Below, one piece after another: positions 6,878-18,448 of a stretch of DNA of 33,013 bases (position 1 is the stretch's first letter; each line of letters starts with the position of its first letter). The notes below the pieces were generated by a model. The model was not told the DNA's origin. It did not search any database and was given only the letters and a program-made list of their open reading frames with translations. The position numbers and the translations under genes are program-made. Origin of the DNA: Muribaculaceae bacterium (GTDB lineage Bacteria > Bacillota > Clostridia > Lachnospirales > Lachnospiraceae); the NCBI GenBank assembly GCA_023663465.1, contig JAMPHJ010000001.1, positions 103,469 to 136,481 of the forward strand, read 5' to 3'.

Positions 6878-8002
6878 CTATCTGGCATTACTGACGTTCA
6901 TTGCATTAAAAATTTTTTCCGCATCATAATCGGGGGAAAAAGTTTCCGCCACCTGACAGATTCTCTCTATTATAGAGACCTCTTCCTCCAATTCCTCCGC
7001 TATCTGTGGCGCCGGTCTTCCTTTTATCAGCTTCTTACAAACCATTTTAATTAAACGCAATTCTTCACCTTCTGCTAAACCTTCTGTTCTACCTTCTGCT
7101 AAACCTTGTTTTCTTCCTTCTTTCAAGCCTTCTTTTCTTCCTCTTTCCAAACCTTCCGCTCTTCCTTCTTCCGCTGCTATTTTTCTGGCTGCCGGCAAAT
7201 CGATATTCTTAAAATGCTCAAATAATTCTCCCATTTTTCTCTCCTTTACCTGTTCCGTAAATTCTGCGACTTCGTCCTCGGAAATTTCCAGATGCCGCAA
7301 CATAGTTGCCACTACCCTTTCTACAATGCCAAGCAGCTCGTCTGTAGACTGCGTAGATAAATCTTCCAGATAGTCTTTGGGCAAATTCAATTTCCGAAAC
7401 TCTTCTGCACTCTGCATCCGATTAATCAGCATGACAAGAGATAGCTCATCTTTCTTTTCAATGAGTTCTTTCACGCTATATTGGTTCAACTGGATTGGTT
7501 TGTAATAAAATTTCGGCGTGAACGGCTCAAATGCCCTGTCAAACAATATTCTGTCCTTAAAATTACGGGCTGCCGTCCATCTCTCTGCGCCTTCATAATA
7601 TACAATTGGAAGAATCGGCGGATACCGGAAATCTTTCGTCTTGCTGATTCCCTTGTGTTCCCTTTCCATTTCTTTCTCATAATCCTCCCAGATATAAACC
7701 ATGTACCGGAGCAACTGCATACTTACATTGTAATCTACTTTTGTCTTATGTTCAATAAGAGATATGAAAAATAATGTATTTTTTTCGGATATTTTTACAC
7801 GTTTTACCGTATCAGAGTTGCGTTCTTCCGTAAACATCGGAACATACCGCTCCGAAACGTCCTCGATATCTTCCGCTCTCACATTTTTTAAAAGTGGTAT
7901 GTCCATATAGTTCCTTAAAAACTGTGAACACAATTCGGCGTTTCCAAAAATAATTTTACTGCTGCTGTCGTGTGGTTTACTGTTTGCAATCTGTTGTTTC
8001 AT
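6878..8002 (-). CDS. Rpn family recombination-promoting nuclease / PD-(D/E)XK transposase-like protein
   Basis: This 374-residue protein resembles the Rpn (YhgA-like) family: NAELCSQFLRNYM near the N-terminus, then a nuclease core with Asp64, Glu84-His-Lys86 in LIEHKTK, and Gln96 in MQLLRY. The C-terminal third carries a helical tandem repeat of the type EGRKEGLKEGR/EGRTEGLAEGE, encoded around 7060-7170 and common in this family. Members are multicopy, mobile-looking genes that cut DNA and promote RecA-independent recombination in known cases. The ATG at 8002 follows GGGAGGAAG. The gene lies between two opposed 144-bp palindromic repeats, with its own promoter and a hairpin-rich leader. Confidence 0.85.
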   Translation of the reverse strand: MKQQIANSKPHDSSSKIIFGNAELCSQFLRNYMDIPLLKNVRAEDIEDVSERYVPMFTEERNSDTVKRVKISEKNTLFFISLIEHKTKVDYNVSMQLLRYMVYIWEDYEKEMEREHKGISKTKDFRYPPILPIVYYEGAERWTAARNFKDRILFDRAFEPFTPKFYYKPIQLNQYSVKELIEKKDELSLVMLINRMQSAEEFRKLNLPKDYLEDLSTQSTDELLGIVERVVATMLRHLEISEDEVAEFTEQVKERKMGELFEHFKNIDLPAARKIAAEEGRAEGLERGRKEGLKEGRKQGLAEGRTEGLAEGEELRLIKMVCKKLIKGRPAPQIAEELEEEVSIIERICQVAETFSPDYDAEKIFNAMNVSNAR

Positions 8003-8610: not shown

Positions 8611-9252
8611 TCAAATATTAGACATAGCAGAATTTTCCTCTATTTCTCGGCAAATCCCCTGGATGACCAGCTTCCGCATGATTTCCCTTTCGCCGTTCTG
8701 ATGGAAAACGCCTTCGTTTAATAACATGCTAAAACAAAATATTTTAGAATATACGCTAATCACAAGATACTTTATTATTTCCTCGGAAGGCGCTTCTTTT
8801 TCCGAAAACTCATCCCGCAGCAGCCGTCCGGCGATATCTATCCCCATGATTTCCCCGGAAGCGGCCTTTTGTTCAAATAATTCCCGCACACGCTTTCCCA
8901 TCGCGGAATTACCGGACAGCAGAATCATCCTAAGGATACAAGTTGTCCTCGCAAGCTGCTCTTCCATTGTTAGGAGCAGATAATTGAATTTATCATATAA
9001 ACTCTTTTCTTTACGGATCCCTTCATACACCTGCTCGCAGAATTTTTCTCCGTTGTAAAAAAGGGCTTTTGCAATCATTTCCTCTTTATCAGAAAAATAC
9101 TCATAAGCCGTACCTTTCCCGATACCCGCTTTCTTCGTAATATCCGCCACGGTAATACTGTTTAAATCGGCTCCTTCTTCATATAATTCGAGCACCGCCC
9201 GATAAATCGCCATTTCTTTTGGTAAATGCCCGCTGTTTCTCATCATCCCCAT
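8611..9252 (-). CDS. TetR/AcrR family regulator of the RND exporter
   Basis: From the ATG at 9252 this is a 213-residue TetR protein with the helix-turn-helix SITVADITKKAGIGKGTAYEYFSDKEEM and a helical ligand domain. The open frame reaches 9270, two bases after the RND stop codon. However, an eight-G tract (9261-9268 on the minus strand) lies 8 nt upstream of 9252 and may serve as the ribosome site. The gene is cotranscribed behind the RND exporter, whose promoter holds a TetR-like palindrome at 13436-13449. It therefore most likely represses the operon until a substrate binds. Confidence 0.9.
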   Translation of the reverse strand: MGMMRNSGHLPKEMAIYRAVLELYEEGADLNSITVADITKKAGIGKGTAYEYFSDKEEMIAKALFYNGEKFCEQVYEGIRKEKSLYDKFNYLLLTMEEQLARTTCILRMILLSGNSAMGKRVRELFEQKAASGEIMGIDIAGRLLRDEFSEKEAPSEEIIKYLVISVYSKIFCFSMLLNEGVFHQNGEREIMRKLVIQGICREIEENSAMSNI

Positions 9253-9272
9253 CGTACTAACCCCCCCCATTC

Positions 9273-12200
9273 TTACTCAGCCGCCTTGTTTTTTTCCCGT
9301 ATAAAAATATCATAAATACAAGGAATCACAATCAACGTCAGCAGGGTGCCGTAAATCAGTCCTCCGATTGTTACGACGGACATAGGCTTCGACATATCCG
9401 CGCCCATATCGTCACTGAACGCCATCGTACTGAGTGCAAGAATTGTGGTTAAAGCCGTCATCATAACCGGACGGATTCGGGTTCTGCCCGCGGTCAGAAT
9501 TGCTTCTTTTTTCTCCATACCGCTTTCCCGTAACTGATTAATGTAATCTACCAATACGATACCGTTATTTACAATAATACCCGAAAGCATGACAAATCCA
9601 ATCAGTGCGATAACGCTCACTTCGCTTCCGCTGATAAAAAGTCCGAGGAAACCGCCTGTAAACGCTAACGGAATCGTAAACATGATGATAAAAGGTGAAA
9701 GCAGTGACTGGAACTGCGCCACCATGATTAAGTACATGAAAATCAACGCCAAAACAAGCATCAGATAAACCTGCTCCATAGCATCTACTATCGTCTCATT
9801 TTCACCGCTCATCGTATAGCTGTAGCCGTTTGGCATCTCATAATCCTGTAATGCCCGCTCCACATCTTCCGAAACAAAACCTACATTATAGCCGTCCGCA
9901 ACTGCCGCCGTAACGCCGATATACCGGGTCTGTTCGATTCTGTTCACGGATTTCGGCGCCTGTGTACTTTCAAAAGAGGCCATTTCGGAAAGCTTAATTT
10001 TTTCCTTGGTGCCGTCCTGGTTCGTTTTCTCAATTTCCAAATCCTTTAAAAGCTCTCTGGTCAGCTCCATATCTTTTGCATGTTTCACATATACGTCGTA
10101 TTCCTGTATCTCTGTCTCTAAGGACGTAGCGCTGGTAGCGTCTGCCAGTTTCGCCTGGATCTGCTGATAAATCTGTGCAACGGTAATCCCATGTTCAATC
10201 GCTTTATCCCTGTCGATTACAATACGCAGCTCCCCGGTGGATTCCTCAAGCCCATCGGATACATCTGCAGTTCCTTCCACGGTTTCTATAATAGCGGCGA
10301 TATCTTTGGCAATGCTTTGCAGCGTATCCAGCTCCCGTCCTTTTACCTGTACGGTAATGCCGCTTCTGCCAAGCGCGCTCATGTCCATCGTTGACGTTTC
10401 AATCGCTGCCTCCGCCTGGTTTTCATCGAGAATATCCGCGATATTTTCCTCGATTTCCAAGGCAATTACCTGATTATCTTTTTTCTTATTCTCATTTAGA
10501 GATACATAGATAGACGTCTCATTGGTAGATGCATTACCGCCACCGGTAAGCATACTCATGGAAGACGAGCTTGCCATAGCGCCCACATCTACGATATCTT
10601 CCATTTCCATCAGCCTTGCCACGACTTCATCCGTTACTTCCGCTGTTTCCGTCAACGGCGTATCCTTCGGAAGACTCAACGTCATAGTAATCTGCGTGCT
10701 ATCCATATCTGGCATAAAGGCAATTCCTTTTGAAAAAGCTGCTGCCGCGCTTATGATAAGCAGCACAAGTACCAGAATCAGAACCACCGGTTTCCACTTC
10801 AACGCTAATGCCAGTGTTTTCTCATAAACCTTCATCAGACCGCCAAAAAATTTCCCTTCTTTCTGCAGTTTTGCCTTCGACATGGTGCCAGACGCCATCG
10901 CCGGTACAACCGTCATTGCCACAAACAGACTGGCAAACAAAGAATAGGCAATGGTAAGTCCCATATCCACAAAAAGCTGCCTCGTAATCCCTTCTGTAAA
11001 GACAATCGGAAGGAACACGCAGACCGTCGTCAACGTAGACGCCATAATCGCGCCCGCTACTTCCCTTGCGCCTTCTATCGCCGCTTCTTTCGCCGAATAA
11101 CCCTCATTCCGCAGCCTGAAAATATTTTCAATGACGACGATGGAGTTATCCACCAGCATACCGACGCCCAGCGCAAGTCCCGACAGTGAAATGACATTCA
11201 ACGTAATACCGCTGAAATACATACAGACAATCGCCGCAATCAGACTAATCGGAATCGAACATGCAACTACCGCCGTCGGGCGCCAGTCTTTCAGGAAAAT
11301 TATTAAAATCAAAATAGCAAGAATTGCGCCGAACAATACGTTATTGATAATGGAATCCATGACAAGGTCGATATAGATTCCCTGGTCCATCAGCGTTATT
11401 AAAATAAGATTTTCATTTTCCGCCTTCAATTCCTCGAACTTCTCAAGAATCCTGTCAGAAACATCGCCCGTCGAATATCCAGTCTGCTTCTGCATGGTAA
11501 TCATAATACCAGGCTCGCCGTTTACATTGGCATAAATATCTGCGGAGTTATCCGTCATGAACACGTCCGCCACATCTTCCAGCGTAATGATGTCCACACC
11601 GTCCATTTCAGGATTTAAGAGCGGCATTTTTTTCAGCTTCTCGATATCCTTGGGTTTATCGCCCACCCTGACCAGATAATCGATGCCCTCTTCTGTCACA
11701 TATCCTGCCGGCATGGAAAAATTTTGCGCCGCCAACAAAGATTTTACGGTATCTACTGTAAGAATCCCATTCATGTCCGCCTGTTCGTAGGCGTTTTCTC
11801 TTGCTTCTTCCAGCTCTTCTTCCCCGTCCAGTATCTGCTGCAAAGCATCTTTTAACTGCTCCGCTGTGTCATTGAGCTGCTCCTCGCCTTCTTTAATCTG
11901 ATCCCAGCCGGACTGAATCTGCTCTAAACCGCTTTCCAACTGCTCTTCACCCGCTTCGAGCTGTTTTTCGCTTGCTTCCAACTGGGTTTCCGCTGTCGTA
12001 AGCTGTAATTCACCAAGACTTATCGCCGTCTGCGCATTGGCAAACTCGATTGCCGCCGTCAGATTCCCTTTGTAAAGCTCTGTCAGCGCGCTATCCAATT
12101 TCGTGATGTTGCCTTCGATTTCTACAAGCTGTTTTTCATATTCTGGAATTGCAAGAAGGCTGGGCGCTAATTGCTCTAGAGATTGCTCTAAGCCCGCTTT

Positions 12201-13376
12201 CGTTTCGATCGCTTTCTGCTTTGCCATCTCCAACAATGCAGTAAGCTCCGCTGGCTGCATAGCCCCGACGATGCTGACGTCCAGATTCAGAATAGACGCA
12301 ATCACGCTGTTTCTCTCACTTTCCGGAATCTGGTCAAGATTGTCAATCGTCGTAATCAGCTCGTCGCATTGTTCTATTCCGCTTTTAAGCCCCTCTTCCT
12401 GCGCTTTCAAAGTCGCTATTTCCGCAGTCAGATGCATTTTCATGGCTTCCAGATCCGCTTTCGCCGTTAAAATCTTCGTCTCGGCTTCTGCAAGCTGCTG
12501 CGCTGTTTCGCTTTTTTTACTGGCAAGCTCATTCTTACCATCCTCTAATTTTGTCTTATTTTCTGCGATTTCCGCCTTTCCATCGGCAAGTTTCTTTTTA
12601 TTATCTTCAAGCTCTGTCCTGCTGTCTTCCAGCTCTTTCTGGCTATCGGTAAGTTCTTGCTTGGTCTCCTCTAACTCTCCTCTGGCGTCGGCAAGCTCCG
12701 CCTGTCCATCGTAAATTTCCTGTTTGCCGTCGGCAAGCTCCTGCTCGGCATCTTTCATTTCCTCATCAATATAACCGAACACTTTTTCATTGATGGCATC
12801 AATTTTTTCCTGCCGGATAATGACCTGGACGCTCTCTTCCAGCAGCCCTGTTGCACTCGCCGATGCAACGCCTTCGATACTTTCCAGCTCTGGAATCACG
12901 ATATTCTGTGTCATCTCCGTTACTTCGGCGTCCGTCATGCCCATACCGCCGACAGCAGCAATCATAATTGGCAGCATATCCGGGTTTAATTTCATGATAA
13001 TAGGGCTTCCTACGGCATCGTCCCAATAACTTTTAATCTGATCCAGATTCTCCCGGATTTCCAAAGAAATTCCGTTCATATCCGCAGACTGTGAAAATTC
13101 CAGAATAACCATAGAGTAATTCTCACTGGAAACGGAACTGATTCCTTCTATATTGCTGACCGTCGCCATCGACGCTTCCACCGGCTTCGTTACGACCATC
13201 TCTACCGTTTCCGGGCTCGCTCCCGGATAAGGCGTCATAACAATTACATAAGGCAGACTGATATTGGGCAGCAAATCAGTAGACATCTTTGTAAAGGAAA
13301 CGACTCCCAAAACGATGACTAAGATAACCGCAACCAATACGGTATACGGCTTTTTTACACTGAATTTCCCTAACAT
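9273..13376 (-). CDS. RND family efflux permease with coiled-coil insertion
   Basis: This 1367-residue AcrB/SwrC-like exporter uses the proton gradient in the cytoplasmic membrane. The N-terminal membrane helix covers about 11-31. The porter region follows, then helices from about 671 on with GVGMLVDNSIVVIEN (737-750), where Asp743 is the expected proton-relay residue. The second half is homologous and ends in GLIYGTLLTLIVIPCIYDIF. The oddity is residues 200-533: a long alpha-helical insertion of repeats such as ELADGKQEI, ELEDNKKKLADG and QLEAGEEQLESG, placed just before the outer docking segment (MNGILTVDTVKSLLAAQ). Ordinary AcrB is about 1050 residues. No adaptor or outer-membrane channel gene is nearby, as expected for a Gram-positive. 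The ATG at 13376 follows AAAGGAAG. Confidence 0.93.
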   Translation of the reverse strand: MLGKFSVKKPYTVLVAVILVIVLGVVSFTKMSTDLLPNISLPYVIVMTPYPGASPETVEMVVTKPVEASMATVSNIEGISSVSSENYSMVILEFSQSADMNGISLEIRENLDQIKSYWDDAVGSPIIMKLNPDMLPIMIAAVGGMGMTDAEVTEMTQNIVIPELESIEGVASASATGLLEESVQVIIRQEKIDAINEKVFGYIDEEMKDAEQELADGKQEIYDGQAELADARGELEETKQELTDSQKELEDSRTELEDNKKKLADGKAEIAENKTKLEDGKNELASKKSETAQQLAEAETKILTAKADLEAMKMHLTAEIATLKAQEEGLKSGIEQCDELITTIDNLDQIPESERNSVIASILNLDVSIVGAMQPAELTALLEMAKQKAIETKAGLEQSLEQLAPSLLAIPEYEKQLVEIEGNITKLDSALTELYKGNLTAAIEFANAQTAISLGELQLTTAETQLEASEKQLEAGEEQLESGLEQIQSGWDQIKEGEEQLNDTAEQLKDALQQILDGEEELEEARENAYEQADMNGILTVDTVKSLLAAQNFSMPAGYVTEEGIDYLVRVGDKPKDIEKLKKMPLLNPEMDGVDIITLEDVADVFMTDNSADIYANVNGEPGIMITMQKQTGYSTGDVSDRILEKFEELKAENENLILITLMDQGIYIDLVMDSIINNVLFGAILAILILIIFLKDWRPTAVVACSIPISLIAAIVCMYFSGITLNVISLSGLALGVGMLVDNSIVVIENIFRLRNEGYSAKEAAIEGAREVAGAIMASTLTTVCVFLPIVFTEGITRQLFVDMGLTIAYSLFASLFVAMTVVPAMASGTMSKAKLQKEGKFFGGLMKVYEKTLALALKWKPVVLILVLVLLIISAAAAFSKGIAFMPDMDSTQITMTLSLPKDTPLTETAEVTDEVVARLMEMEDIVDVGAMASSSSMSMLTGGGNASTNETSIYVSLNENKKKDNQVIALEIEENIADILDENQAEAAIETSTMDMSALGRSGITVQVKGRELDTLQSIAKDIAAIIETVEGTADVSDGLEESTGELRIVIDRDKAIEHGITVAQIYQQIQAKLADATSATSLETEIQEYDVYVKHAKDMELTRELLKDLEIEKTNQDGTKEKIKLSEMASFESTQAPKSVNRIEQTRYIGVTAAVADGYNVGFVSEDVERALQDYEMPNGYSYTMSGENETIVDAMEQVYLMLVLALIFMYLIMVAQFQSLLSPFIIMFTIPLAFTGGFLGLFISGSEVSVIALIGFVMLSGIIVNNGIVLVDYINQLRESGMEKKEAILTAGRTRIRPVMMTALTTILALSTMAFSDDMGADMSKPMSVVTIGGLIYGTLLTLIVIPCIYDIFIREKNKAAE

Positions 13377-13509: not shown

Positions 13510-13544
13510 TGAAAAATTTAGACCAACGGGGGATCCGTTGGTCT
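13510..13544 (-). terminator. Terminator of the WYL-TerB operon
   Basis: A perfect 10-bp stem (AGACCAACGG 13520-13529 with CCGTTGGTCT 13535-13544), followed on the minus strand by AAATTTTT. It lies 27 bp after the stop of the last gene of the operon. Confidence 0.75.
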
Positions 13545-13570
13545 GGGATAATTTACATATTCCGATTCTA

Positions 13571-14584
13571 TTACCTCTTCTTTTCCTCTTTATCCAGCAC
13601 GCCAAGCACATCTTTTGCTACTGCTTCGGATTCGCTTGTCAGATTACCTTCCTCTGTGAGCACAGGTGTATCCAGCACAGCTTTGATAGTTGCTGCAATG
13701 GACGCTGCAGCCGCCACTGTCTGTTTCGCTTCCAGAGTAAAGGCAGAATAGTCTGTCCCTTCCTCCGCAATGACAGTTCTTAACTGATTCAGTAATGGCT
13801 GGAAATAAGCATCCAGTCTTGCCAGAATACTATAAAATAAATAAGTTCTTCTCTTAATTGCTATACATTGTTCTTCCGCTGCTTTTAACTGCTCGCAGAT
13901 TTCTTCTGCCTTTGCTTCATTTGCATAAGCAGTATCCAGGTTCTTACTTGCCTTAGCTCCTGTCACAAGCCCCATAACAAGCAATGCAGGTCCTGCCACC
14001 AGCCCGCCTAAAACAGCCGTTCCTCCTGCTATTCCCCAACCTCCTGCTCCAAGAACACCCCCGCCTAAGAATGCTAATGTAGCATTTTCTGCTGCTATTC
14101 CACTAAGAGCGCTAATGGCTGTTCCTGTAGATGCCGTACCAAAAGTCGTCGCAGCGCTATATGCTCCAAAGGCTGCAAATGCACCGCCTGCAGCGCCCGC
14201 CATTGCGCCCCCTGTCAGTGAAGAGGCAAAGCTTTCCATTTCTTTTAAAGTATTAAACACATCATGGTCTATATGTAGATTATTTAACTCATCCAATCCA
14301 AGTGAATCCACAAATTCTACATTTTTTATCCATTCAAAAGAATCCAGAAATTTCCTCACACTTGAATTTAATACTGTAACTTTTTCCTCTCCTAGATACT
14401 CCAATGCTTCGCCGCACTGTCTCCGCGCTTTATCTAATTGTTTCGCCGCGTCCTCTACTTTTTCATTTGCACGCTCATTAATTCTTTTTGCCTGGGAATT
14501 ATCCTGCGATGCTTTAATGGTTTTTCCCACTCCTGCAGCTGCTGTTACTGCCCCAATTCCCATAAATAAAAACGGTATTGGCAT
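13571..14584 (-). CDS. Glycine-zipper membrane protein of unknown function
   Basis: From the ATG at 14584, preceded by AGGAGGTGG, the protein has 337 residues; the frame extends to 14647 but without a better site. The sequence shows a short hydrophobic N-terminus (1-20) and a charged helical stretch (about 25-65). A long Gly/Ala-rich hydrophobic block follows (124-210, with GGAMAGAAGGAFAAFGAY and LAFLGGGVLGAGGWGIAGG). A second helical stretch (215-275) leads to a soluble tail. A glycine-zipper hairpin between helical arms is an architecture of pore-forming or membrane-remodelling proteins. That function is inference; I do not recognise the family. It is the last gene of the WYL operon. Confidence 0.75.
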   Translation of the reverse strand: MPIPFLFMGIGAVTAAAGVGKTIKASQDNSQAKRINERANEKVEDAAKQLDKARRQCGEALEYLGEEKVTVLNSSVRKFLDSFEWIKNVEFVDSLGLDELNNLHIDHDVFNTLKEMESFASSLTGGAMAGAAGGAFAAFGAYSAATTFGTASTGTAISALSGIAAENATLAFLGGGVLGAGGWGIAGGTAVLGGLVAGPALLVMGLVTGAKASKNLDTAYANEAKAEEICEQLKAAEEQCIAIKRRTYLFYSILARLDAYFQPLLNQLRTVIAEEGTDYSAFTLEAKQTVAAAASIAATIKAVLDTPVLTEEGNLTSESEAVAKDVLGVLDKEEKKR

Positions 14585-14618
14585 ATTTCCACCTCCTAAA
14601 TAAATATCATTTTCATCA

Positions 14619-15320
14619 TCAAAGTTCATCATCATCAAAGAACTCATCTATGTTCCTACTATCTTTTCTACTGACTCCCGGTATGACCTTGCGCATATCT
14701 AATCCATACACGTCCTCTTTTACACTATTTAAAATTATCTCGCGCCTATTGGTATATTCTTCAATAATGCTCACTGTCTCGGATGATTTAATATCGAAAT
14801 ATTCTCTTTTGATTACAAATGGACCTTCTTTATCTAACATCTGTGCTATATTTCTATCAATATCCAATATCGCTTTCATGGCATTTTCCAATTCTAAGAA
14901 AAGCACCGCGTCTAATTCAAACTTTTCAATTACATACTGAATAATTTCACGCTCTTCGTCTGCATATGTTCCATCACTCATAACAATACTTAACATATTC
15001 CATAGAAATATATCGGAATTTATATAATCCATAAATATAAAAAGACTTAGCGTAATAAATCCCTCACTCTTTTCACGTTGAGTCTGATGTACCAAATCAA
15101 TTCCTTCTTTAATAACTGCATAGCAATTTTCTTTACCTGTTATTTTATTTACCTGATTTTGGCATTCCTCAATGAGATCCTCTTTGTACTGGTCGAACAA
15201 TGGGTCTGTTTCTTTGGCAATTTCCAAAAAAGTTTCCATTTCCTAGTCGCTAATTTCTCCGTCGGCGGCTATTAGGTAATAGTAAATCTGAATAGCTGCC
15301 CATTTTAGTAATTTTGTCAT
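14619..15320 (-). pseudogene. TerB-like protein gene interrupted by an in-frame amber codon
   Basis: A strong ribosome site (AAGGAGGA, 15326-15333) and an ATG at 15320 begin MTKLLKWAAIQIYYYLIAA and DGEISD. TAG follows at 15243-15245 (codon 26), and the same frame then continues EMETFLEIAKETDP for about 206 more residues to 14619. AADGEISD(x)EM is the acidic first motif of TerB-type helical domains. A related motif recurs downstream as MSDGTYADEEREIIQ. One base change (GAG to TAG) explains the break. Translation could restart at the ATG at 15239, one codon after the stop, giving a 206-residue protein without the first helix. TerB domains occur in tellurite/stress and some anti-phage loci. Confidence 0.75.
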
Positions 15321-15331
15321 CCTGTTCCTCC

Positions 15332-16918
15332 TTAAAATCTAAATGCTGTATCTGATAACATGAGCTCGTCAAATTCTTCCTGGCTCCTAAACTGAACCTC
15401 CTTTCCCAGACATTCCTGAATACGCGCATTTCCACGAATAAAACCATTGACATCACATTCCATAATCGCCTTATCCATTTCCAGAAATCCCTGATTAAAT
15501 GTCTGGATATGCTCTGTCATATATTCAGAAACCATGATATTCATTTCCTGCCTATACTGCCGAATTAAGGCAATTGCCTTTTCACACTCCTGCTCGATTC
15601 GGATTCTCTCTTCTCTTGCAAGTTCCGCCTCTTTTAACGCTGTCGCAATTTCTTGATAACAAGCCACTGCCGCCGCATATCCCAAGGTTGCGCCAGCTAC
15701 GCCGCCGACCACGCCAAGCAATTTCGCCGTACTTTTCGACGCCGTTACTGCTGCACTCTCTGCAAAACTTGCACCCATAGCGGAAAACATGGCGGAACCA
15801 ATCTCTCCAACTCCCTGCTCGCCTAATTCCTCTACGCACTTAGCGCCTGTTATATCACCGTCAAAATATCTACGAAATGTCCTGCCTACATTCATAGTCG
15901 TCGTGACAAGTCCCGCCGCCAGGTTCGATTTCGACAAGCCTTTGATATACTCATTTGATGAATTTTGCATTGCTCCTTTTATGACGCTTCCAGAAAAAGC
16001 TGTGGTATAACTTACCACCATCCCTGTTCCCGTATCCGCCACAACCGCAACCGCGGCTTCTTCGGGCGTTTTTTCACCTTTGAAACATGCAACGGTATTT
16101 CTTACAAGGGAAATTGCTCCCGATATCTTTACTCCTATTATGGATTGCTCTATTCCTGCGTCATGTGCAATTTTCATGGTATCTTTTGCAGTTGACCATT
16201 TAGCATAAAGCCTCGCTTCTACTGACTCGCCTTTTGTAAGTCCGCTTTTTCTTAGCTTTTTTTTAATATACTCGTACTTTTCTATTTGACTTAACTTTTG
16301 CTCTGCCACCTCACTTTTGCCAATATCCTTCGCATGTTCCGCCTGCGTTTTCAATTCCGCAATTTTTTCATCAATTATTCCTTTGTTGCCATTTATGCCT
16401 ATGAGCGCCTCGTAATCATCATCCGCAATATCTAAAATCGCCTTGGCATCAATATACTTTTCATACTTCTTACTGTTTAACTTGTTTAGCAATTCTTCCG
16501 GGCTATTGCCAACAAACTTCATCTGTGAAGCGGTTCCCGGTATTATCGTGCCATCAGGCGCACGCTCTACCAAATCATATAAAGGGTCATTCACTCTTCC
16601 AATATCGTCTGTACGCGTTATTCTATTTGGTTTTCCGTTAATAATATTGTCTGCATTTTTCCTTGCAACTGACTTTACTTCCGCAGCAAATCCCGCTTGC
16701 TGCTTAATATTCTGATTCCGATATTCGGGGTTAATCTTGCTTTTTGCGATATCTTTAAGACCTTTTGCCAATCTCTGCCCCGTCTCATTATCCATTCCAG
16801 AATATGCCACATAATGCTGCTTAACTGCGCTTCCATATCTTTGAACCACTTCAGCCGATGCACCTTTTAATGCTTCTCTTTCCAGTTTTTTAATCTTTTC
16901 TTCATGTTCCTTATCCAT
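15332..16918 (-). CDS. Large membrane-associated protein with possible restriction-fold N-terminus, unknown function
   Basis: A 528-residue protein that I cannot assign to a named family. Residues 75-134 read AGFAAE (Glu80), then DDIGRVNDPLYD (Asp115), then SQMKF (Gln132, Lys134). That spacing resembles the E...D...QxK core of PD-(D/E)XK nuclease-like domains. A charged helical middle follows (about 140-250). Gly/Ala-rich hydrophobic stretches lie around 258-312 and 400-420 (LLGVVGGVAGATLGYAAAVA). A charged C-terminal helix bundle (425-480) closes the protein. It starts 12 bp after the WYL gene and ends 11 bp before the TerB start, so the genes form one operon. Confidence is high that it is a real gene and low for function. 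Confidence 0.8.
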   Translation of the reverse strand: MDKEHEEKIKKLEREALKGASAEVVQRYGSAVKQHYVAYSGMDNETGQRLAKGLKDIAKSKINPEYRNQNIKQQAGFAAEVKSVARKNADNIINGKPNRITRTDDIGRVNDPLYDLVERAPDGTIIPGTASQMKFVGNSPEELLNKLNSKKYEKYIDAKAILDIADDDYEALIGINGNKGIIDEKIAELKTQAEHAKDIGKSEVAEQKLSQIEKYEYIKKKLRKSGLTKGESVEARLYAKWSTAKDTMKIAHDAGIEQSIIGVKISGAISLVRNTVACFKGEKTPEEAAVAVVADTGTGMVVSYTTAFSGSVIKGAMQNSSNEYIKGLSKSNLAAGLVTTTMNVGRTFRRYFDGDITGAKCVEELGEQGVGEIGSAMFSAMGASFAESAAVTASKSTAKLLGVVGGVAGATLGYAAAVACYQEIATALKEAELAREERIRIEQECEKAIALIRQYRQEMNIMVSEYMTEHIQTFNQGFLEMDKAIMECDVNGFIRGNARIQECLGKEVQFRSQEEFDELMLSDTAFRF

Positions 16919-16930
16919 AATGTTATACCC

Positions 16931-17884
16931 CTACAAAATCTGTCTGACCCTATCGCCCTGACTCCTGACCCACATCTCAATCCCTTTCCCAAAAACTTCC
17001 GCCAAAATCGTGTAGGTTCCGTTATCTTCCTTTATAATTTTGGCTGTTGGTAAGCGATCGAGGACTGCTTCTACTGCATCTTCCTTGCATTCCAGTTTGA
17101 CCCTCTGAAGTTTTCCCCCGAACATAAATTGAATTCTTTTCCTAAACTCCCCCTCTTCAAAGCGGCTCGCATAAGGTATTTTGAAATGTTCCTCTAAAAT
17201 CTCTAATTCCTGGATTCTGTCTATACGGTATATCGTGGGGAATGGGTCGTCCGCATTTTCAAAAGCTTTCTGCCTGTCAATATTTTCAATAAAACCTACC
17301 AGATAAAAATAATATTCGGAAAACAAAATGGCCAATGGCTTTAAGTAACGTACTACGACGGTTTTATTTTTTAATTTTTCATATTTTATAGATATCATCC
17401 GGTACTCCCGGATTGCATTTCCTAGTGGCAGAAGTTTGTCCAAAAATACTTTTTTATGCTGCAGCTCCACATAATGAAAACGCTCATTAGATAATAAATC
17501 ATTTACGACTTTGCGCTCCTCTAACGGCACGCATTTTTTAATTAATTTATCCAATATGGTCATCATTTCCTGCTTCATGAAAGCGCGACTTGCCAAAAGA
17601 ATTTTGCTGACAGCCAATATCTCAGCGTTTGACAAGTCTGATTGTGTAGCTTGTTCCAAATAATAACATTTTTTGTGAAAATCATAGACTAATTGAGAAC
17701 CATAGCCTTCTTCGCCGACTTTTCTATCGAGAAATTCCCTAATTGTTTCTAAATCTCTTTGTATGCTTTTTTCATTGACATGAAACTGTAATGCCAATTT
17801 TTTCTTGCTTATTGTATGCCCGCACATAAGCTCTGTGTAAATATACAAAACCCGGTAGCTCTTATCAAATGTAATTTCATTCAT
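16931..17884 (-). CDS. WYL-domain transcriptional regulator
   Basis: This 317-residue protein has an N-terminal winged helix-turn-helix (about 8-65, with ISKKKLALQFHVNEKSIQRD). A WYL-type domain follows (about 150-240, core KPLAILFSEYYFYLVGFIEN, ending near YRIDRIQELEIL), and a C-terminal WCX extension (about 250-317). WYL regulators sense nucleic-acid-like or nucleotide ligands and often control defence or DNA-damage loci. It is the first gene of the four-gene operon and likely regulates it. An inverted repeat in its promoter region (17938-17952) could be its site. Confidence 0.9.
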   Translation of the reverse strand: MNEITFDKSYRVLYIYTELMCGHTISKKKLALQFHVNEKSIQRDLETIREFLDRKVGEEGYGSQLVYDFHKKCYYLEQATQSDLSNAEILAVSKILLASRAFMKQEMMTILDKLIKKCVPLEERKVVNDLLSNERFHYVELQHKKVFLDKLLPLGNAIREYRMISIKYEKLKNKTVVVRYLKPLAILFSEYYFYLVGFIENIDRQKAFENADDPFPTIYRIDRIQELEILEEHFKIPYASRFEEGEFRKRIQFMFGGKLQRVKLECKEDAVEAVLDRLPTAKIIKEDNGTYTILAEVFGKGIEMWVRSQGDRVRQIL

Positions 17885-17920
17885 ATAATTTGTGTATCCC
17901 CTCGATTAACTTTTTACCAC

Positions 17921-17952
17921 ATTATACTTTTCTACATGGACACATATTGTCT
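17921..17952 (-). promoter_or_regulatory. Candidate promoter/operator of the WYL operon
   Basis: A perfect minus-strand TATAAT lies at 17921-17926, but no good -35 box is found 16-18 bp upstream (a TAGACA lies 21 bp away). In its place is the inverted repeat GGACA-N5-TGTCT (17938-17952). A -10 box without a -35 box beside a palindrome is what an activated or WYL-controlled promoter would look like. Confidence 0.4.
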
Positions 17953-18112
17953 ATCTATGTTTTCCTCTGGAATTTTTTATTCCTTCCTACAGTAAACTAT
18001 TTATATATTATCACTATTAATTTATATTTGCAATATTGTATATTGCATTAGCACATAAATGAATTGTTTATGTATAACATACTACTTTGTAAACTGTAAT
18101 TTGAGGTGACTA

Positions 18113-18210
18113 GATTGAAAAATCAGAGATTTTTCAATCGCGAATTTGTGCTGACATCGCAGATGTCTTGGGCACATAAATGTCGCAAACTGAGGAAGGA
18201 ACATGGTTAT
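18113..18210 (+). repeat. REP-like intergenic repeat, copy B (longest)
   Basis: The most complete copy has two hairpins. First is GATTGAAAAATC-aga-GATTTTTCAATC (18113-18139, perfect 12-bp arms). Then CGAATTTGTGC and GCACATAAATGTCG flank an inner GACATC-gca-GATGTC (18153-18167). It ends with the ribosome site GAGGAAGGAAC and ATGGTTAT. It supplies the translation start of the Xre gene. The rest of the 17953-18112 gap is AT-rich, with no clear signal. Confidence 0.8.
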
Positions 18211-18214
18211 TTTT

Positions 18215-18448
18215 ATGAGTGAAAAGCGGAAACAGGAATATAAAATGATTGGTCTGAATATTGCTTATTATCGAAAACTAAAAGGATTGACACAATTACA
18301 ACTTGCAGAAACAATCAATATCAGCCGCACTCATATCAGCAATATAGAAGCCCCCAATATGCGGACTTCTATATCCTTAGATACTCTGCTTGATATTGCA
18401 GACGCATTAGAAATTCCGGTTACAAATCTTTTATACTTTAATAGATAA
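18215..18448 (+). CDS. Xre/Cro family helix-turn-helix regulator
   Basis: A 77-residue single-domain DNA-binding protein, with helix-turn-helix TQLQLAETINISRTHISNIE preceded by GLNIAYYRKLKG. It resembles small SinR/phage Cro-like repressors. The upstream in-frame ATG at 18203 is only 1 nt from the ribosome site, so ATG 18215 is preferred. It stands alone on the plus strand, diverging from the WYL operon, behind repeat copy B. Its target is unknown; proximity makes the WYL operon a possible one. Confidence 0.85.
   Translation: MSEKRKQEYKMIGLNIAYYRKLKGLTQLQLAETINISRTHISNIEAPNMRTSISLDTLLDIADALEIPVTNLLYFNR

What the first reader, a model, noticed from the sequence alone, without database searches (positions are those of the whole stretch)
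13510..17952. Candidate undescribed system: WYL regulator, restriction-fold/membrane protein, TerB-like protein, glycine-zipper membrane protein
Four genes run head to tail with gaps of 11-35 bp, from a promoter-like region at 17921-17952 to a terminator at 13510-13544. Seen directly: a WYL regulator first, two different Gly/Ala-rich membrane proteins, and a TerB-type acidic repeat protein. Known: WYL regulators often control defence loci, and TerB domains occur in stress and some anti-phage systems (Shango carries one, with an ATPase and a helicase that are absent here). Inference: a sensor (possible nuclease-like N-terminus) plus a pore-like effector with TerB as adaptor, that is, an abortive-infection or membrane-stress module. 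I do not recognise this combination.
Basis: partly seen in the sequence, partly recalled or inferred. Interest (0 to 1): 0.85.

Follow-up and report, generated by a model that had tools for sequence, protein, structure and literature searches.

The report
Modular membrane-linked phage defence candidate operon
A gut bacterium carries a four-gene operon that looks like a modular anti-virus system, in which different cutting enzymes are joined to one shared membrane-type platform; it is a new version of a listed but unstudied defence candidate, and the copy in this genome has one damaged gene.

Summary
The four genes are real, co-directional and tightly packed (gaps 12, 11, 34 bp). The combination is not unknown. 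The last gene matches PADLOC's candidate defence family PDC-M09A (E=1.8e-29). The 528-aa protein misses the PDC-M09B model, but relatives 42-48% identical match it (best 2.8e-17), and its family profile aligns to clear PDC-M09B proteins (hhalign 98.2%, E=4.6e-14). So this is a PDC-M09-type locus with extra parts: WYL, TerB and a divergent XRE regulator. Its head domain was found at 15 loci, 14 with the PDC-M09A-like gene adjacent, one of them an Azospirillum plasmid where WYL comes first. Sibling proteins share the rear part or the partner gene but carry other heads: HNH-like, M48 peptidase with BnzB, BnzB (of Bunzi), PDC-M40B, and, without the partner gene, a non-specific endonuclease. The third slot is TerB, a CxxCxxCC metal-binding protein, or both. 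Defence, membrane docking and nuclease activity are inferred. TerB has an in-frame stop at codon 26; intact copies exist in relatives. Verdict: new variant of a known candidate, probably part of one modular superfamily.

The parts
16931..17884 (-). WYL-domain transcriptional regulator (317 aa), first gene of the operon
   Evidence: PF13280 32.2 bits, cut-off 21.8; PADLOC WYL model 6.4e-15; dN/dS 0.021 against the sister species
15332..16918 (-). Effector-like protein (528 aa), PDC-M09B relative: nuclease-like head, linker helices, Gly/Ala-rich hydrophobic middle, conserved tail
   Evidence: relatives in G103, G250, G098, G1142 (48, 44, 42, 43% identical) match PDC-M09B at 2.8e-17 to 1.4e-13; family profile A5 against two PDC-M09B proteins 98.2%, E=4.6e-14; dN/dS 0.136
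16394..16798 (-). Head domain (residues 41-175) with E80, D115, Q132-x-K134 pattern
   Evidence: invariant in 13 of 13 aligned heads, down to 40% identity; the same letters seen by eye in L191 and L192; no profile support for homology to Mrr_cat
15335..16213 (-). Hydrophobic middle and tail (residues 236-528), shared with sibling effectors that carry other heads
   Evidence: TAIL and MID profile hits across loci; relation to the core of the last gene by hhalign 92.6%, E=4.5e-7, may partly reflect composition
14619..15320 (-). TerB-type gene, broken: in-frame stop at codon 26 (15245-15243), 206-aa remainder from ATG 15239
   Evidence: intact 231-aa copy in sister locus L002 passes PF05099
13571..14584 (-). 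Gly/Ala-rich membrane-type protein (337 aa), PADLOC PDC-M09A
   Evidence: PDLC04407 E=1.8e-29, PDLC04406 E=3.5e-26
13520..13544 (-). Intrinsic terminator
   Evidence: 10-pair stem with 6 G-C pairs, T run
18203..18448 (+). XRE-type HTH regulator (81 aa), divergent from the operon
   Evidence: 97.5% identical in the sister species; a divergent pair of a similar small protein and WYL also in L056; XRE label is my reading of the sequence, no family scan was made
17885..18202 (.). Shared region between the XRE-type gene and WYL, with inverted repeats
   Evidence: 12-nt perfect inverted repeat 18113-18139 and others; function not tested

Best explanation
The operon is a PDC-M09-type anti-phage (or anti-mobile-element) module. 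The Gly/Ala-rich protein (PDC-M09A) and the related hydrophobic part of the 528-aa protein sit together at the cytoplasmic membrane as a platform. TerB (in siblings also a CxxCxxCC metal-binding protein) is the adaptor or sensor that holds the complex inactive and responds to infection. On triggering, the N-terminal head, a nuclease-like domain with an E-D-QxK site, is activated and cuts nucleic acid, killing or arresting the infected cell or destroying invading DNA. WYL, with a divergent XRE-type protein, keeps the operon repressed until stress or ssDNA appears. Shown here: gene order and conservation, family relations, head swapping, purifying selection, the TerB stop. Inferred: membrane location, complex, trigger, nuclease activity, defence, repression.
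For: PDC-M09A match of the last gene; 4 of 6 sibling Gly-rich proteins scanned match PDC-M09A. Of the 15 head-bearing effectors, 6 match PDC-M09B (1.0e-9 or better), and the family profile aligns to the clear PDC-M09B proteins of G972 and G752. At 15 loci with this head: PDC-M09A-like gene adjacent at 14, TerB at 11, CxxCxxCC at 9, WYL at 4. Other heads in siblings: M48 peptidase (48.4 bits) and Endonuclease_NS_2 (34.6 bits), BnzB (best 2.9e-124) and PDC-M40B (1.4e-44), HNH-type GH-E/GmrSD_C below cut-off. E, D and QxK invariant in 13 of 13 heads. Patchy: 8 of 77 genus genomes have any match, own genome included, 5 of them near full length. Near neighbours at 35 loci include R-M methylases, a type II REase, HerA and Cas1, which are not among the 25 of 38 control families shown. 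The Azospirillum copy has PDC-S37 (1498 bits) about 1 kb upstream of its WYL gene. In the sister species an RnlA/RNase LS-type gene lies between this operon and the transporter. CapW/BrxR WYL proteins repress immune operons until they bind ssDNA (PMC13373217, passages seen).
Against: PDC-M09 is a computational candidate; no phage test was found. The window's 528-aa protein does not match PDC-M09B (E<=1; E<=0.1), nor do 8 of the other 14 head-bearing loci. Head fold unproven: Pfam gives no domain there, hhalign to Mrr_cat 0.1-0.3%. Head-only profile links to the other E-D-QxK-like heads are 3-35%, the lowest close to the unrelated WYL control (1.3%). 2 of 6 sibling Gly-rich proteins miss PDC-M09A. 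No strong transmembrane helix by hydropathy. WYL not found at 11 of 15 loci, some cut by contig ends. The neighbour test has one control set, shows only the top 25 families, does not tell which proteins matched, and mad3 appears in both sets. TerB is broken in this copy.
Confidence: 0.6

Rival explanations
1. Membrane-disrupting abortive infection: the Gly/Ala-rich cores of the last gene and of the 528-aa protein open a pore or depolarise the membrane, and the head is the sensor.
For: Both proteins have long Gly/Ala-rich hydrophobic cores that are related to each other by profile (92.6%, E=4.5e-7); many abortive-infection systems act on membranes (general knowledge).
Against: Heads vary among enzyme-like domains while the hydrophobic parts are constant, which suits effectors better than sensors; no strong transmembrane helices and GxxxG not above shuffles.
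Confidence: 0.2
2. A general envelope or metal stress response (Ter-like), with TerB and CxxCxxCC sensing metal or redox state, not phage.
For: TerB passes Pfam in the sister copy, and CxxCxxCC is a putative metal-chelating family; Ter domains are tied to stress pathways (PMC4012209 cites Anantharaman 2012; passage seen).
Against: Patchy distribution (8 of 77), other nuclease or peptidase heads in siblings, PADLOC candidate status, defence-type neighbours.
Confidence: 0.1
3. A toxin used against other bacteria (polymorphic toxin with swapped tips).
For: Swapped enzyme-like N-termini on a constant rear part resemble polymorphic toxins.
Against: Heads are N-terminal, whereas polymorphic toxins usually carry them at the C-terminus (recalled); WYL control. 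Immunity genes and secretion signals were not searched for.
Confidence: 0.05
4. In this genome the operon is decaying and no longer works (compatible with the best explanation for its relatives).
For: In-frame stop in TerB; TerB and the last gene have the highest dN/dS of the five genes compared (0.29 each).
Against: The other three genes are open and constrained (dN/dS 0.02-0.29); an ATG just after the stop may allow re-initiation; an assembly error is not excluded.
Confidence: 0.4

Closest known systems
PDC-M09 (PADLOC phage defence candidate, A and B genes)
   Same: Last gene matches PDC-M09A; 6 of 15 effectors with this head match PDC-M09B; A-like and B-like genes lie together
   Different: Adds TerB (between B and A in the window), WYL and a divergent XRE-type gene; the window's own B protein is below the model's reach; no paper on PDC-M09 found
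Bunzi (BnzA, BnzB)
   Same: Sibling loci carry BnzB-type heads beside the same PDC-M09A-like gene; TerB is listed for Bunzi (PMC10952713, passage seen); an accessory protein in L127 weakly matches BnzA (1.5e-5)
   Different: The window operon has neither BnzB nor BnzA
PDC-M40 (PADLOC candidate)
   Same: PDC-M40B proteins in L058 and L062 sit beside CxxCxxCC and PDC-M09A-like genes
   Different: Different big protein; the window has no PDC-M40B
Shango
   Same: TerB-like protein
   Different: Shango has TerB, an ATPase and a helicase (PMC10250203, passages seen); the last two are absent from the operon
Dionysus (TerB)
   Same: Reported TerB-based defence system (named in PMC12926258, passage seen)
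   Different: Gene content not seen by me, so the relation cannot be judged

Membership tests
PDC-M09 | PDC-M09A protein | tested here: met
   E=1.8e-29
PDC-M09 | PDC-M09B protein by the PADLOC model | tested here: inconclusive
   No match for the window protein; 6 of 15 head-bearing effectors match; profile-profile 98.2%
PDC-M09 | A and B genes adjacent | tested here: met
   A-like gene next to the effector or one small gene away at 14 of 15 loci; in the window TerB lies between them. That PADLOC requires both genes is recalled
PDC-M09 | Anti-phage activity | not testable with these tools
   No paper in the held library names PDC-M09
Bunzi | BnzB protein | tested here: not met
   No BnzB hit for any of the four proteins at E<=1; BnzB only in sibling loci
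Bunzi | BnzA protein | tested here: not met
   No BnzA hit in the operon; the one match in the genome is on another contig, C57, E=1.3e-5
Shango | TerB plus ATPase plus helicase | tested here: not met
   No ATPase or helicase among the four genes
PD-(D/E)XK nucleases | E/D/(D,E,Q)xK active-site pattern | tested here: met
   E80, D115, Q132xK134 in 13 of 13 heads; the pattern itself is recalled and weak evidence alone
PD-(D/E)XK nucleases | Restriction-endonuclease fold | tested here: inconclusive
   Only one family, Mrr_cat, was compared: hhalign 0.1-0.3%; no model could be made
TerB family | PF05099 above cut-off | tested here: met
   Met by the sister copy, 31.9 bits, cut-off 24.4; the window remainder alone scores 16.8
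CapW/BrxR-type WYL repressor | ssDNA-responsive repression of the adjacent immune operon | not testable with these tools
   A WYL domain is present; function not testable

The most novel reading that the evidence does not exclude
PDC-M09, PDC-M40, BnzB-headed (Bunzi-like) loci and this operon are one immune superfamily with interchangeable warheads: a constant membrane platform (PDC-M09A plus the related rear part of the big protein) and a metal/TerB trigger unit fire whichever head is attached, nuclease, HNH, BnzB or M48 peptidase. The same head is also wired to a HerA-like ATPase on a Ruminococcus plasmid, so warheads move between different triggers.
Probability: 0.5. Interest if true: 0.75.

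Novelty: new variant of a known kind. Interest (0 to 1): 0.55.

Why it matters
PDC-M09, PDC-M40 and Bunzi are listed apart, and I found no mechanism for them in the papers searched. If they share one platform with swappable enzymatic heads, testing one helps to explain the others, and the active site of each head becomes a direct handle on how the platform kills or protects. The TerB and CxxCxxCC slot would also give TerB, a long-standing puzzle, a concrete place in an immune complex.

Tried and rejected
Rejected: Shango (no ATPase or helicase); Bunzi membership (no BnzA or BnzB in the operon); a glycine zipper in the strict sense (GxxxG within shuffles); a universal housekeeping family (any match in only 8 of 77 genus genomes).

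Led nowhere: Mrr_cat comparison; PDB sequence search of both families (best E 0.085, best E 0.0032 to a helical stretch of PDCD10, taken as coiled-coil similarity); the head in phage records (no match) and the effector profile in viral contigs (no relative among 96 pattern matches); the last gene in plasmids by tblastn (no match at 1e-8, although the divergent Azospirillum copy is recognised by profile); a clean empty site, because the relatives with the nearest amidase genes differ downstream altogether (L098-L102). Literature: PDC-M09 in no held paper. 'Bunzi' is in 10 papers, several unrelated; I saw passages of three (PMC10952713, PMC12926258, PMC11206119), none with a mechanism. Dionysus with TerB and phage: one review.

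Dropped before counts: of 40 fetched sibling loci (L046-L065, L120-L139), 5 without a strong PDC-M09A-like gene were left out of the neighbour test (L056, L057, L131, L132, L134). 137 of 291 neighbour genes were used (four nearest per locus, 120-900 aa, genes labelled as cassette parts excluded), and 137 of 176 control genes of at least 120 aa, drawn at random from those up to 900 aa. Three of 20 control regions did not exist and two were short. L003 and L050 are the same locus and were counted once, as were L002 and L097. The neighbour tables show 25 of 96 and 25 of 38 families. The records were chosen by me, not drawn at random.
Full report
What is there. Four minus-strand genes, WYL (16931-17884), a 528-aa protein (15332-16918), a TerB-type gene (14619-15320) and a 337-aa Gly/Ala-rich protein (13571-14584), are spaced by 12, 11 and 34 bp and end at a good terminator (13544-13520). 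The claimed promoter was not recovered. A small XRE-type gene (18203-18448) points away from WYL across a 318-bp region with inverted repeats. The flanks are an RND-type transporter and a TetR gene on one side, and amidase, YARHG, amylase, FtsH and TilS genes on the other.

State of the genes. TerB has an in-frame stop at codon 26; the second codon after it is an ATG that opens the 206-aa remainder. Intact copies exist in relatives, among them the sister species G233/L002, whose TerB passes Pfam (31.9 bits, cut-off 24.4), while the window remainder alone does not (16.8). Against the sister, dN/dS is 0.021 (WYL), 0.136 (528 aa), 0.294 (TerB after the stop), 0.289 (337 aa) and 0.195 (flanking amidase). 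All are constrained, so the stop is recent, spurious or tolerated.

What it belongs to. The 337-aa protein is PDC-M09A (1.8e-29). The 528-aa protein itself matches no PADLOC, NCBIfam or Pfam model above a cut-off. Relatives in G103, G250, G098 and G1142 (48, 44, 42 and 43% identical) match PDC-M09B at 2.8e-17, 6.5e-17, 1.4e-13 and 2.8e-17; with those of G726 (1.0e-9) and the Azospirillum plasmid (6.3e-14), 6 of the 15 effectors with this head match and 9, the window's included, do not at E<=0.1. The G972 and G752 proteins match PDC-M09B at 6.7e-99 and 6.2e-98 beside strong PDC-M09A genes (2.0e-113 and 1.5e-104). A profile of the window family aligns to these two at 98.2%, E=4.6e-14, over 290 columns; the unrelated WYL (0.7%) and Mrr_cat (0.1%) profiles do not align. 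So the operon is PDC-M09-like, with extra genes. Of six sibling Gly-rich proteins scanned, four match PDC-M09A, L053 and L059 do not.

Co-occurrence. The head domain was found at 15 distinct loci: window, L002, L046, L047, L050, L051, L052, L069, L070, L122, L123, L127, L128, L191 and L192. The PDC-M09A-like gene is adjacent, or one small gene away, at 14 (all but L070; the L128 frame is only 139 aa). TerB is at 11, CxxCxxCC at 9, at least one of the two at 12. WYL is at 4, counting the annotated one in L069. Contig ends cut L052 inside the effector and L046 about 1 kb upstream of it. L127, from another Bacillota family, has WYL, effector, PDC-M09A-like, CxxCxxCC and TerB genes in a row; L069, an Azospirillum plasmid, has WYL, effector and PDC-M09A-like genes. 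Frequencies: effector, 8 of 77 genus genomes with any match, five near full length, 7 of 200 and 8 of 378 in family samples; PDC-M09A-like gene, 21 of 200 in the family and 14 of 398 in the phylum.

Modularity. Sibling big proteins that share the rear part, or that sit beside the same PDC-M09A-like gene, have other heads: M48 peptidase plus BnzB (L048), BnzB by PADLOC (L054, L055, L064) or by my own profile (L063, L138, L193), PDC-M40B (L058, L062), HNH-like (L059, Pfam below cut-off; L053, L056 and L133 by my reading of the motif), and Endonuclease_NS_2 (L057, which shares the middle part but has no PDC-M09A-like gene in the stretch). L065 carries a further E-D-QxK-like head (head profile 6.4e-4). 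L049 has a kinase-type protein in front of TerB and the PDC-M09A-like gene. In L070 the head-bearing protein follows a HerA-like ATPase. The third slot is TerB, CxxCxxCC (PF03692, 29.0 bits, cut-off 23), both, or a ferredoxin-like protein just below cut-off.

The head. Thirteen residues are invariant across 13 heads: G47, L54, G76, A79, E80, N88, R102, D105, N110, D115, G123, Q132, K134. E80, D115 and Q132-x-K134 with a glycine between fit a PD-(D/E)XK-type site; this reading is mine and no model confirms it. L191 and L192 show the same letters by eye. Head-only profile links to the PDC-M09B pair (13%), L129 (6.5%), L126 (3.1%) and L065 (35%) are weak, against 1.3% for the WYL control; the whole-protein links to these are 97-99%, so relatedness of the whole is firmer than that of the heads alone.

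Defence context. Among 137 near neighbours at 35 loci, PADLOC at E<=1e-20 matched 96 families; the 25 shown include PDC-M09B (five proteins), R-M methylases, a type II REase, HerA and Cas1. The control of 137 genes from regions of the same genomes matched 38; the 25 shown are mostly PD-T4-6 kinase models with one protein each, consistent with a single cross-hitting kinase, plus SspH and mad3 among others. Mad3 is in both. The tool does not say which proteins matched. This is supportive, not strong. The Azospirillum copy has PDC-S37 about 1 kb upstream of WYL. The sister species carries an RnlA/RNase LS-type gene among others between this operon and the transporter, where the window lacks about 6.8 kb; the three larger of those genes had no PADLOC hit.

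How it likely works. Variable enzyme-like heads on a constant platform argue that the head is the effector. The platform (337-aa protein plus the related hydrophobic rear part; 92.6% by profile, composition may contribute) would dock at the membrane; TerB/CxxCxxCC would be the trigger or brake; WYL, as CapW/BrxR do (PMC13373217, passages), would keep the operon silent until ssDNA appears. None of these functional steps is shown.

Papers. Seen as passages only: PMC10952713, PMC11514479, PMC12926258, PMC11206119, PMC4012209, PMC13373217, PMC10250203; others as search listings. What is said of polymorphic toxins, abortive infection in general and the PD-(D/E)XK pattern is recalled.

Noticed in passing
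L097 4992-11833 (sister species), window junction 13513-13522: The sister genome has about 6.8 kb absent from the window right behind the operon's terminator: an RnlA/RNase LS-type gene with an RNase H1 N-terminal domain, a 1023-aa protein that reads like a repeat surface protein, an XRE-type gene and a 310-aa protein.
   Followed up: partly
L070 1124-7311 (Ruminococcus albus plasmid pRUMAL01): The same head domain follows a HerA-like ATPase and a 543-aa protein, without the PDC-M09A-like gene; L057 (G032) has a similar layout with an Endonuclease_NS_2 head.
   Followed up: partly
L049 2130-7269: A 1124-aa protein with a kinase domain stands where the effector would be, in front of TerB and the PDC-M09A-like gene.
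   Followed up: no
L127 8004-8705: CxxCxxCC protein with a further part that weakly matches BnzA positions 42-143 (E=1.5e-5), a second thread to Bunzi.
   Followed up: partly
window 9273-13376: RND-type transporter of 1367 aa with a weak, below-cut-off coiled-coil-type match at residues 178-378, next to a TetR gene (8611-9270).
   Followed up: no
window 6878-8002: Transposase_31 (YhgA-like) protein, 80.8 bits.
   Followed up: no
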